A stretch of DNA of 64,000 bases from Oceanidesulfovibrio indonesiensis (GTDB lineage: Bacteria; Desulfobacterota; Desulfovibrionia; Desulfovibrionales; Desulfovibrionaceae), in assembly GCF_007625075.1 (NCBI RefSeq), contig NZ_QMIE01000003.1:167326-231325 (forward strand). The letters run 5' to 3'. Of the stretch, positions 46,903-50,442 are shown piece after piece. A program made the position numbers and the translations under genes. The notes under the pieces were generated by a model. The model had not been told where the DNA came from and searched no databases. It worked only from the letters and a program-made list of their open reading frames with translations. Each line of letters starts with the position of its first letter. The stretch's first letter is position 1.

Positions 46903-47901
46903 ATGCCGTTCACCATGCCCTCGGTCACGAATAAAAGCGCAGGCGGCCCCCGCCATGTGGGGCTGGAGCTCGAGTTCGCCGGCATGGACATCCGCGATGC
47001 GGCGCGCGCCGTTGCCGATGTCTTCGGGGGCGAGGTGCGGGAGGTGGACACCTTCATCTGCACAGTGGAAGGCACGACGCACGGCAATTTCTCTGTGGAG
47101 CTGGATTCTTCTTTGCTCAGGAGCAAAGGGTATCTCAAGATCCTCCACGAGATCGGCATCGACCTTTCAGACGCGAACGAAAAGCGCATCGAACGCATTC
47201 TGCTCGATGTGGCGGACGAGCTCATCCCATATGAGGTTGTCGCCCCGCCCGTGCCAATGACCGAACTTGCTCCCATGGACGACCTGCGCGAACTGCTGCG
47301 CCGGCGCAAGGCGAAAGGGACCCGCGCCTCCATCCTGTACGCCTTCAGCATGCAGTTCAACGTTGAGCCGCCGGACCTGACCGCACCCACACTCGCCGGT
47401 TTCCTCAAGGCCTTCCTGCTCTGCTACCCGTGGCTGCGCGAAGCCTCGGGCCTCGACATGACGCGTATCCTCAGCCCTTTCATCGACAAATTTCCCTCGG
47501 ACTACGTGAAGCTGGTGGTCGATCCGGCCTACCAGCCCTGCGACGAGGCCGCGCTGATCGACGATTACCTGGACCACAACCCCACCCGCAACAGGCCGCT
47601 GGACTGCATGCCCATTTTCGCCCACCTGGACAGGGACCGGGTGATGGCGCGCGCCAATGAAAAACACCTCATCAAACCGAGGCCCGCGTTCCATTACCGG
47701 CTGCCCAACTGCCTCATCGATGAACCGGCCTGGCGCATCGCCAGGGAGTGGGATCTGTGGGTTGCGGTGGACGACCTCTCCCGCGACGCCGACACGCTCG
47801 CCGCCATGGGGGAAGACTTCCTGAACACGCCCGGCTTTCCGCTCGATCTGTTCACCGACTCCTGGAAGGAGAAGATACCGCGATGGCTCGACCGCTCATA
47901 G
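46903..47901 (+). CDS. Amidoligase-family (COOH-NH2 ligase) protein
   Basis: The product has 332 residues. The family opening RHVGLELEFAGMDIRDAA is followed by an acidic metal/ATP site in HGNFSVELDSSLL, and further conserved pieces DKFPSDYVKLVVDPAY and PIFAHLDRDRVMA. These proteins belong to the glutamine-synthetase-like amidoligase group and are predicted to join carboxyl and amino groups in small peptides or unknown metabolites. The ATG at 46903 follows a GAGGAGAG site. The reading frame overlaps the next gene by 19 bases, so the two are coupled. Confidence 0.85.
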   Translation: MPFTMPSVTNKSAGGPRHVGLELEFAGMDIRDAARAVADVFGGEVREVDTFICTVEGTTHGNFSVELDSSLLRSKGYLKILHEIGIDLSDANEKRIERILLDVADELIPYEVVAPPVPMTELAPMDDLRELLRRRKAKGTRASILYAFSMQFNVEPPDLTAPTLAGFLKAFLLCYPWLREASGLDMTRILSPFIDKFPSDYVKLVVDPAYQPCDEAALIDDYLDHNPTRNRPLDCMPIFAHLDRDRVMARANEKHLIKPRPAFHYRLPNCLIDEPAWRIAREWDLWVAVDDLSRDADTLAAMGEDFLNTPGFPLDLFTDSWKEKIPRWLDRS

Positions 47902-48695
47902 GCGTCAGCGGTCCGGACAAGGGCGGCGCCGGCATGTGGTTTTTCACCTGGCTGGCCGTGGTGCTCGCCGGAGGTTGGGCAGTGCGCCTGCATCCAGCCA
48001 ACCCGCGGTCTGACAGGAAGCTGCACGGCCTGGTCATCACCGGTGGCGCGGACGTGGCTGCATCCTTGTACGAGGAACGCAGCGACACCCCTCTGGACGA
48101 TCTCGACGCGGCCGAGCCCGAGACCATGCACTACCTCGTCGGCCTGGTCTGGTATCCGCTGGTGGCCACGATCCGCTGGGCGCTGTCCTCCCGCAAAAAG
48201 GAGACCGTCTCTGGCGACACGGCCCGCGACAAGCTCGAGTACGCCCTGCTGCAGCGCGCCATGGACGAGGATTTGCCTGTGCTCGGCATCTGCCGCGGCA
48301 TGCAGCTGCTCAACGTGTTTTTCGGCGGGTCCCTGCACAAGAGCATCGCTGAATTCTACATGGAGGAACCACAGGTCCGATCCGTCCTGCCGCGCAAGCT
48401 CGTGTACCTCGAAAAAAATTCCCGGCTCCGGTCCGTATTCCGGCGCAACAAGCTGCGGGTGAACGCCCTGCACGACCAGGCCGTGAACGAGCTGGGCGCG
48501 GGCCTGCGCGTGGCCGGCCGGGAGCTGAACGACGTGGTCCAGGCCATAGAGCACGCCGACCTCGAGTACGTGGTGGGCGTTCAGTGGCATCCCGAATTCC
48601 TGCAGCAGAAAAAGGAACAGCGGCGGCTGTTCCGCGCCCTGGTGCGGGCAGCCAGGGCGCGACGCCAACGCGGCAAAGCCCCGGCGCGGCAATAG
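47883..48695 (+). CDS. Class I glutamine amidotransferase (PuuD-like)
   Basis: The product has 270 residues. The catalytic cysteine is in LPVLGICRGMQLLN and the His-Glu pair in GVQWHPEF. The family's VITGGADV strand is present, but an extra hydrophobic segment (LVGLVWYPLVATIRWAL) interrupts the N-terminal half and looks like a membrane-associated helix, which is not typical of soluble PuuD. Its start lies inside the amidoligase gene with an AAGGAG site, which shows tight coupling. It probably hydrolyses or transfers gamma-glutamyl groups in the same pathway. Confidence 0.85.
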   Translation: MARPLIGVSGPDKGGAGMWFFTWLAVVLAGGWAVRLHPANPRSDRKLHGLVITGGADVAASLYEERSDTPLDDLDAAEPETMHYLVGLVWYPLVATIRWALSSRKKETVSGDTARDKLEYALLQRAMDEDLPVLGICRGMQLLNVFFGGSLHKSIAEFYMEEPQVRSVLPRKLVYLEKNSRLRSVFRRNKLRVNALHDQAVNELGAGLRVAGRELNDVVQAIEHADLEYVVGVQWHPEFLQQKKEQRRLFRALVRAARARRQRGKAPARQ

Positions 48696-49002: not shown

Positions 49003-50442
49003 ATGCCGAGGATCATCAGAAAGTTCGGAACTCGTCTGCGTTCCGCCAGCCGGAGCCCCATCCCCACACGCGACCGCGGCAGCGATGAGGTAGCGCCCGG
49101 CGCGCGCACTCCCAGACAAAGGGAGCTCGCAACGCGCATCGATTCCCTCGGCATGGAGCTTTCCAGACGCCAGGGGCTCAGCCGGAGGGAATTTCTGGGC
49201 ACGGCCGCAGGCATGGCCGCCGCCTTCGTAGCCATGAACCAGACGTTCGGCATGCTGTTCGATGCCGACCTGGCCGAGGCCGCAGACCCGGCGCGCGCCG
49301 CCGAACGGGCGGACCGCCTGTCCGATCAGCTCGTCATCGACATGCACACCCACTTCCTGCGTCCTGATACGCGGCTCGAAGGGTTCGTCGCACTGCGGGA
49401 GCTGGCGCGCGACAGGGGCTGGAACCCGGACCTCCAGGACAAGGAGCAGAGCCTCGAAGATCTCATGTTCCGAAACTACATCACCGAGATTTACCTGAAA
49501 AGCGACACCACCATGGCCTGCATCAGCGGCGCGCCGTCCGAGATTGAGCGGGACTGGTTCCTCACCAACGACATGAAAGCCAGCGCCCGCGAGGCCATCA
49601 ACGGCCTGGCCGGGACCCGCCGCTCGTTCGCCCACGCCATATTCGCGCCCGGCTACTCCGGCTGGATGGACCAGGTGGAGTACGCCATCGAAACCCTCAA
49701 GCCGGACTCCTTCAAGGGCTACACCATCGGCGACAACACGCACAAGAACCTCTCCGAGCACCCCTGGCGCATGGACGACGAGGACCTCGTCTATCCCGCC
49801 TATGAGAAGTTCAAACAGGCCGGCCTCATGAACGTGTGCGTGCACAAGGGCCTGTTCCCTCCGGAAGATGAAGAGCGCTTCCCCCACCTCACGCCATACT
49901 GCACCGTGCAGGACGTGCCCAAGGCGGCAAAGGACTGGCCCGAGCTCAACTTCATCATCTATCACGCCGGCTACCGCTTCGTGGGCGGCCGCGGCAGCGA
50001 AGGCGCCTGGGAGCAGTTCCAGAAAACGGGGCGCATCGAATGGGTCACGGATCTGGCCGAGATTCCCGAAAAGCACGGCGTGAACAACGTATATGCCGAC
50101 CTCGGCCAGACCTTCGCCATGACGGTGATCGCCGAACCGCGCCTGGCCGCTGTCATCCTCGGCCAGCTCGTGAAAGGACTCGGCGCGGACCATGTCTGCT
50201 GGGGATCGGACGCCCTCTGGACCGGCGCCCCGCAATGGCAGATCGAGGGCTTGCGCCGGCTGGAGATACCCGAGGACCTGCGCGAAAAATATGACCTCCC
50301 GGAGCTCGGCGGCCCGGATTCCGGGATAAAACGCGCCATTCTCGGCGAGAACAACGCCCGGTTGTACGGTGTCGATGCGGAGCAGGCCGTCATCGCCATG
50401 CGCCACGACGGCATCGCCCGGCTGAAAGGACAGCTGGCGTAG
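49003..50442 (+). CDS. Tat-exported amidohydrolase (ACMSD-like family)
   Basis: The product has 479 residues. A twin-arginine signal is visible late in the N-terminus (LSRREFLGTAAGMAAAFVAM, residues of about 59-78), preceded by an unusually long 58-residue n-region. The TIM-barrel metal site shows IDMHTHFLRPDTR, then VCVHKG, IYHAGYRF and CWGSDALWTGAP with the catalytic aspartate. Export via Tat implies cofactor loading in the cytoplasm. The ATG at 49003 has an AGGAG site seven bases upstream; internal starts closer to the Tat motif (for example the methionine before ELSRRQG) are possible. Substrate unknown. Confidence 0.88.
   Translation: MPRIIRKFGTRLRSASRSPIPTRDRGSDEVAPGARTPRQRELATRIDSLGMELSRRQGLSRREFLGTAAGMAAAFVAMNQTFGMLFDADLAEAADPARAAERADRLSDQLVIDMHTHFLRPDTRLEGFVALRELARDRGWNPDLQDKEQSLEDLMFRNYITEIYLKSDTTMACISGAPSEIERDWFLTNDMKASAREAINGLAGTRRSFAHAIFAPGYSGWMDQVEYAIETLKPDSFKGYTIGDNTHKNLSEHPWRMDDEDLVYPAYEKFKQAGLMNVCVHKGLFPPEDEERFPHLTPYCTVQDVPKAAKDWPELNFIIYHAGYRFVGGRGSEGAWEQFQKTGRIEWVTDLAEIPEKHGVNNVYADLGQTFAMTVIAEPRLAAVILGQLVKGLGADHVCWGSDALWTGAPQWQIEGLRRLEIPEDLREKYDLPELGGPDSGIKRAILGENNARLYGVDAEQAVIAMRHDGIARLKGQLA

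What the first reader, a model, noticed from the sequence alone, without database searches (positions are those of the whole stretch)
46903..48695. Amidoligase and glutamine amidotransferase encoded with a 19-base overlap
A glutamine-synthetase-like amidoligase and a class I amidotransferase share coding sequence and are therefore translationally linked. Amidoligases of this group are known to cluster with amidotransferase-like hydrolases and are predicted to build peptide-like metabolites, but products are unknown. Here the hydrolase also carries a hydrophobic insert that suggests membrane association.
Basis: partly seen in the sequence, partly recalled or inferred. Interest (0 to 1): 0.6.

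Follow-up and report, generated by a model that had tools for sequence, protein, structure and literature searches.

The report
Ligase–hydrolase gene pair with hydrophobic insert
Two adjacent bacterial genes, one for an enzyme that should make amide bonds and one for an enzyme that should cut gamma-glutamyl amides, have been inherited together across two bacterial phyla, and in this lineage the cutting enzyme gained a conserved greasy helix once; the pairing is a known kind, but its substrate is unknown.

Summary
An Amidoligase_2 gene (46903-47901) and a Peptidase_C26 class I amidotransferase gene (47883-48695) overlap by exactly 19 nt. The overlap is minor: only the window and its genus mate have 19 nt; other pairs range from 28 nt overlap to 73 nt gap, 4 nt being commonest. 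The pairing is the real signal. In 39 of 49 homologous loci from two phyla the genes are adjacent. In one family 14 of 15 amidoligase genomes carry the hydrolase, and every genome with a strong hydrolase match carries the amidoligase (Fisher p about 1e-18). Catalytic Cys-His-Glu is invariant in 39 of 39 hydrolases. The hydrophobic insert is real (about 36-41 residues, one predicted 20-residue helix), present in 17 of 39 hydrolases, gained once on the amidoligase tree, with an Arg invariant in 17 of 17. A single helix inside one globular domain cannot simply cross the membrane; it should lie in-plane or dock a partner. Most likely mechanism: a stand-alone gamma-glutamyl-type amide make/break cycle, analogous to PuuA/PuuD but with another ligase family and no conserved oxidase. 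The pairing is already visible in public annotation; I found no description of the insert-bearing variant. Substrate unknown.

The parts
46903..47901 (+). Amidoligase_2 family ligase, 332 aa, predicted GS-like carboxylate-amine ligase of unknown substrate; invariant residues include E22, E24, D68, N153, R229, R260, H264, R266
   Evidence: Pfam PF12224 203.5 bits; conserved columns across 49 homologues; model pLDDT 93.9
47883..48695 (+). Peptidase_C26 / class I amidotransferase-fold hydrolase, 270 aa; catalytic C137, H236, E238
   Evidence: Pfam PF07722 141.7 bits; triad invariant in 39/39; Foldseek to Lin1909, PuuD, SpuA
47883..47901 (+). 19-nt overlap of the two reading frames
   Evidence: same length only in genus mate L019
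47866..47871 (+). AAGGAG, Shine-Dalgarno-like, 11 nt before the hydrolase start, inside the ligase gene
   Evidence: read from sequence
48090..48206 (+). Hydrophobic insert in the hydrolase (residues about 70-108); predicted helix 83-102 HYLVGLVWYPLVATIRWALS; Arg at residue 98 invariant among insert carriers
   Evidence: alignment, model, column counts

Best explanation
The two genes are a self-contained amide make/break module. The amidoligase uses ATP to activate a carboxylate, probably the gamma-carboxyl of glutamate or something glutamate-like, and joins it to an amine. The C26 hydrolase forms a thioester through C137 and releases the acyl group again, as PuuD and SpuA do with gamma-glutamyl amides. 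The insert helix near the hydrolase active site brings the hydrolase to the membrane face or to the ligase, so that conjugation and deconjugation happen in one place. Shown here: linkage, co-occurrence, intact catalytic residues, fold of the hydrolase, single origin of the insert. Inferred: gamma-glutamyl specificity, ATP use and direction of flux, role of the insert.
For: Pair linked in 39 of 49 loci of two phyla. Co-occurrence 14 of 15 versus 0 of 134 in one family. Separated pairs still keep the matching hydrolase type: G031 (ligase in the insert clade) has an insert-bearing hydrolase in trans, G321 (ligase in a non-insert clade) a non-insert one. Distance matrices of the two proteins correlate, Mantel r 0.72 with none of 2000 permutations as high. 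The hydrolase resembles Lin1909, SpuA and PuuD first, by sequence and by fold (E 5e-16 to 2e-20), ahead of ammonia-supplying amidotransferase subunits. C137/H236/E238 invariant in 39 of 39. In L003 a gamma-glutamyltranspeptidase gene lies directly upstream on the same strand. PuuA with PuuD is an established gamma-glutamyl ligase and hydrolase set in E. coli (PMC9397018).
Against: No substrate evidence of any kind. No oxidase or dehydrogenase is conserved beside the pair, so what happens between ligation and hydrolysis is unknown. Seven alphaproteobacterial-type amidoligases form a clade with no linked hydrolase, so hydrolysis is not always needed. The gamma-glutamyltranspeptidase neighbour is a single instance. 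The GS fold of the ligase is only weakly supported by structure comparison (best E 0.056, TM about 0.3, although the top ten are all GS or the YbdK family).
Confidence: 0.5

Rival explanations
1. Glutamine-dependent amidation: the C26-like protein is a glutaminase subunit that feeds ammonia to the amidoligase, which amidates a carboxylate.
For: Class I amidotransferase fold with an intact Cys-His-Glu triad; tight co-occurrence and co-evolution fit a subunit relation; the insert could be a docking helix.
Against: Nearest relatives by sequence and fold are stand-alone C26 hydrolases, not ammonia-supplying subunits. A clade of seven ligases lacks a linked hydrolase, and two genomes encode the partners far apart.
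Confidence: 0.2
2. Envelope or membrane-linked conjugation: the ligase attaches an amino acid or amine to a lipid-linked, peptidoglycan or protein carboxylate and the insert-bearing hydrolase removes it at the membrane face.
For: Insert hydrophobic in all 17 carriers with an invariant Arg; insert position just after the GGxD motif and before the nucleophile Cys.
Against: 22 hydrolases from the same family lack the insert yet keep the pairing, so membrane docking is not part of the core reaction. No envelope genes are conserved nearby. Amphipathicity of the helix is weak.
Confidence: 0.17
3. Ligase and hydrolase belong to a polyamine or amine catabolic gamma-glutamyl pathway like Puu/Pau, with the middle steps encoded elsewhere in the genome.
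For: Same order of chemistry as PuuA and PuuD (PMC9397018); an aldehyde dehydrogenase and an amino acid binding protein gene lie upstream of the pair on a Rhodobacteraceae plasmid.
Against: No PuuB-like oxidase or PuuC-like dehydrogenase recurs across 49 loci. The single aldehyde dehydrogenase case is not repeated. Whole genomes were not searched for the middle steps.
Confidence: 0.1

Closest known systems
E. coli PuuA / PuuD (and Pseudomonas PauA / SpuA) gamma-glutamylation pathway
   Same: ATP-dependent amide ligase working with a C26 gamma-glutamyl hydrolase; the hydrolase here is nearest in sequence and fold to Lin1909, SpuA and PuuD
   Different: Ligase is Amidoligase_2, not a PF00120 glutamine synthetase paralogue; no oxidase or dehydrogenase conserved alongside; insert helix in the hydrolase
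Amidoligase_2 (PF12224) plus gamma-glutamyl-GABA hydrolase family gene pairs, e.g. on Dinoroseobacter shibae pDSHI02 and a Qingshengfaniella alkalisoli plasmid
   Same: Same two genes, same order, adjacent or overlapping; already annotated by family in public records
   Different: Those hydrolases lack the hydrophobic insert
GS-like amidoligases classified by Iyer et al. 2009 (Mol Biosyst 5:1636)
   Same: The superfamily survey that, as I recall it, proposed such ligase and peptidase/amidotransferase gene links; paper not held here, seen only as a citation
   Different: I could not check whether this subfamily or its insert-bearing hydrolase is described there
Phage Amidoligase_2 proteins (PHROG 2443; LUZ24-like phages)
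   Same: Same broad Pfam family
   Different: Window ligase matches no PHROG and no phage record; the LUZ24-like phage UFV-P2 carries its amidoligase near a class II amidotransferase and an ATP-grasp gene (PMC3890496)

Membership tests
Amidoligase_2 (PF12224) | Profile match over the curated cut-off along the whole domain | tested here: met
   203.5 bits against cut-off 22, profile 2-244 of 245
Amidoligase_2 (PF12224) | Conserved acidic and basic active-site-type residues | tested here: met
   E22, E24, D68, N153, R229, R260, H264, R266 invariant in 49 of 49; roles assigned by analogy to GS, not measured
GS-like fold superfamily | Glutamine-synthetase-like fold | tested here: inconclusive
   Model pLDDT 93.9; top ten Foldseek hits are GS or YbdK family but best E is 0.056 with TM about 0.3
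Peptidase C26 (PF07722) | Profile match and Cys-His-Glu triad in GICRG and QWHPE motifs | tested here: met
   141.7 bits, cut-off 20.5; triad invariant in 39 of 39
PuuD equivalog | Score above the NCBIfam equivalog cut-off | tested here: not met
   70.5 bits against cut-off 266 for PRK11366
Gamma-glutamyl hydrolase activity | Cleavage of gamma-glutamyl amides | not testable with these tools
   Needs enzymology
Puu/Pau gamma-glutamylation pathway | Ligase, oxidase, dehydrogenase and hydrolase encoded together | tested here: not met
   Only ligase and hydrolase recur in 49 loci

The most novel reading that the evidence does not exclude
A gamma-glutamyl-type conjugation/deconjugation cycle unlike Puu/Pau, in which an Amidoligase_2 ligase and a C26 hydrolase are the whole pathway, and in which one lineage added a membrane- or partner-docking helix near the hydrolase active site to localise removal of the tag.
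Probability: 0.25. Interest if true: 0.65.

Novelty: new variant of a known kind. Interest (0 to 1): 0.42.

Why it matters
In the literature I could search I found no Amidoligase_2 protein with an assigned substrate, and no relative of this one in the PDB by sequence. The pair is a clean two-gene system, co-inherited and patchy, with a well-characterised hydrolase family on one side, so the hydrolase can be used to read out what the ligase makes. That makes an open question testable with two purified proteins.

Tried and rejected
The 19-nt overlap as the key feature: rejected, genus-specific. Wider operon: rejected, no third gene recurs across the loci apart from a few close relatives. Phage origin of the pair: no phage match; plasmid matches are all alphaproteobacterial replicons. 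Housekeeping glutamine synthetase: rejected, the genome's only PF00120 gene is elsewhere. The second amidoligase in the genome as a close paralogue: rejected, it is a phage-type enzyme with hardly any detectable similarity. The insert as a single transmembrane segment: rejected on topology. The insert as a strongly amphipathic helix: weak, moment 0.24-0.48, beyond the 5% level of shuffles in only three of 17 sequences. Five ligase positions differ between insert and non-insert clades, three of them in residues 72-85; suggestive of an interface but not separable from clade divergence. The ligase-hydrolase complex was not modelled. Iyer et al. 2009 was not held. Promoter and terminator scans gave nothing on the coding strand.

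Full report
Observation. The two reading frames exist as described: a 332-aa Amidoligase_2 protein at 46903-47901 and a 270-aa Peptidase_C26 protein at 47883-48695, overlapping by 19 nt. Both starts align with homologues. Both genes evolve under purifying selection against the genus mate L019 (dN/dS about 0.25 and 0.32). The hydrolase also has its own Shine-Dalgarno-like AAGGAG 11 nt before its start.

The overlap. Only the window and L019 overlap by 19 nt. Among 39 linked pairs, 29 overlap, most by 4 nt (13), 8 nt (6) or 1 nt (4), and 10 have gaps of 1 to 73 nt. (My notebook entry says fifteen 4-nt overlaps; the count is thirteen.) Overlaps of this sort are common in bacterial operons and are compatible with translational coupling, but coupling was not tested.

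The pairing. Of 49 amidoligase homologues from the window's phylum and Pseudomonadota, 39 have the C26 hydrolase immediately downstream. In a sample of 149 genomes of the window's family, 15 carry the amidoligase and 14 of these carry a strong hydrolase match; no genome without the amidoligase has a match of that strength (the next best is E 8e-49 in G005, with a stop inside). Fisher's exact test gives 9e-19, or 1.4e-17 if G005 is counted; related genomes are not independent, so the p-value overstates the case. In two genomes where the ligase stands alone, the hydrolase lies elsewhere: G031 has an insert-bearing one and G321 a non-insert one, each matching the clade of its ligase. In G141 only weak matches were found. 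Distance matrices of the two proteins correlate (Mantel r 0.72, highest of 2000 permutations 0.27). The pair is therefore a co-inherited unit.

Neighbourhood. No third gene recurs beyond close relatives. Neighbours include unrelated housekeeping and signalling genes. One hint is a gamma-glutamyltranspeptidase directly upstream in L003, another an aldehyde dehydrogenase upstream on a Rhodobacteraceae plasmid. In the window, a 4-alpha-glucanotransferase and a large alpha-amylase-family protein lie divergently upstream and an amidohydrolase lies downstream.

Hydrolase. Sequence and fold place it nearest to Lin1909, SpuA and PuuD. Cys137, His236 and Glu238 are invariant in 39 sequences. It is far below the PuuD equivalog cut-off, so it may work like PuuD but is not PuuD.

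Ligase. Conserved Glu, Asp, Asn, Arg and His residues suit a GS-like carboxylate-amine ligase. AlphaFold2 gives a confident model (pLDDT 93.9). Foldseek ranks GS and YbdK first but without significance. No PDB relative by sequence. The genome's only PF00120 glutamine synthetase is a different gene.

The insert. Residues about 70-108 of the hydrolase are an insert of about 36-41 residues present in 17 of 39 hydrolases and absent from 22, and also present in the unlinked G031 copy. On the ligase tree its presence needs one change. The model gives one helix at 83-102, with lower confidence (block pLDDT 59-78) and a low-confidence leader at 65-80. The consensus is roughly LIGLLLFPLLxLLRxLFS with Arg invariant in 17 of 17. 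A single helix whose two ends return to one globular domain cannot cross the membrane once, so it is either in-plane on the membrane or a docking helix. In sequence it sits between the GGxD segment and the nucleophile Cys, which in this fold should be near the active site (inference; the model coordinates were not measured).

Mechanism. I favour a stand-alone amide make/break cycle with gamma-glutamyl-type chemistry. The hydrolase half rests on family evidence, the ligase half on weaker fold evidence plus conserved residues, and the link on strong co-inheritance. Ammonia supply from glutamine is the main rival; a clade of seven ligases without a linked hydrolase and the hydrolase's nearest relatives argue against it.

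Known or new. The ligase and hydrolase pairing is already annotated by family in public records, and a 2009 superfamily survey, known here only by citation, probably covers the general idea. I found no experimental substrate for this family in the searched papers, judged from search listings and a few passages; subscription journals are mostly not held. The insert-bearing clade is best called a new variant of a known kind.

Noticed in passing
L001 (G000:C15:16564-20244): The same genome holds a second, phage-type Amidoligase_2 gene (PHROG 2443, E 5e-95), beside a DUF5049 protein and a protein matching large phage families; probably a prophage.
   Followed up: partly
L003 6115-7941: A gamma-glutamyltranspeptidase gene lies directly upstream of the ligase-hydrolase pair in a gammaproteobacterial MAG, same strand.
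   Followed up: partly
L039-L043, L087, L088: Seven amidoligases (Azospirillum, Microvirga, Rhodovastum, Indioceanicola and two unnamed Pseudomonadota genomes) form one clade without a linked hydrolase, five of them on plasmids.
   Followed up: partly
window 46903-47901 (ligase residues 51, 72, 77, 85, 159): Ligase positions nearly fixed in the clade whose hydrolases bear the insert and different elsewhere; residues 72-85 could be an interface.
   Followed up: partly
window 49003-50442: Amidohydrolase gene (PF04909) with a twin-arginine-like SRREFLG stretch near its start, about 300 nt downstream of the pair; no link to the pair was established.
   Followed up: no
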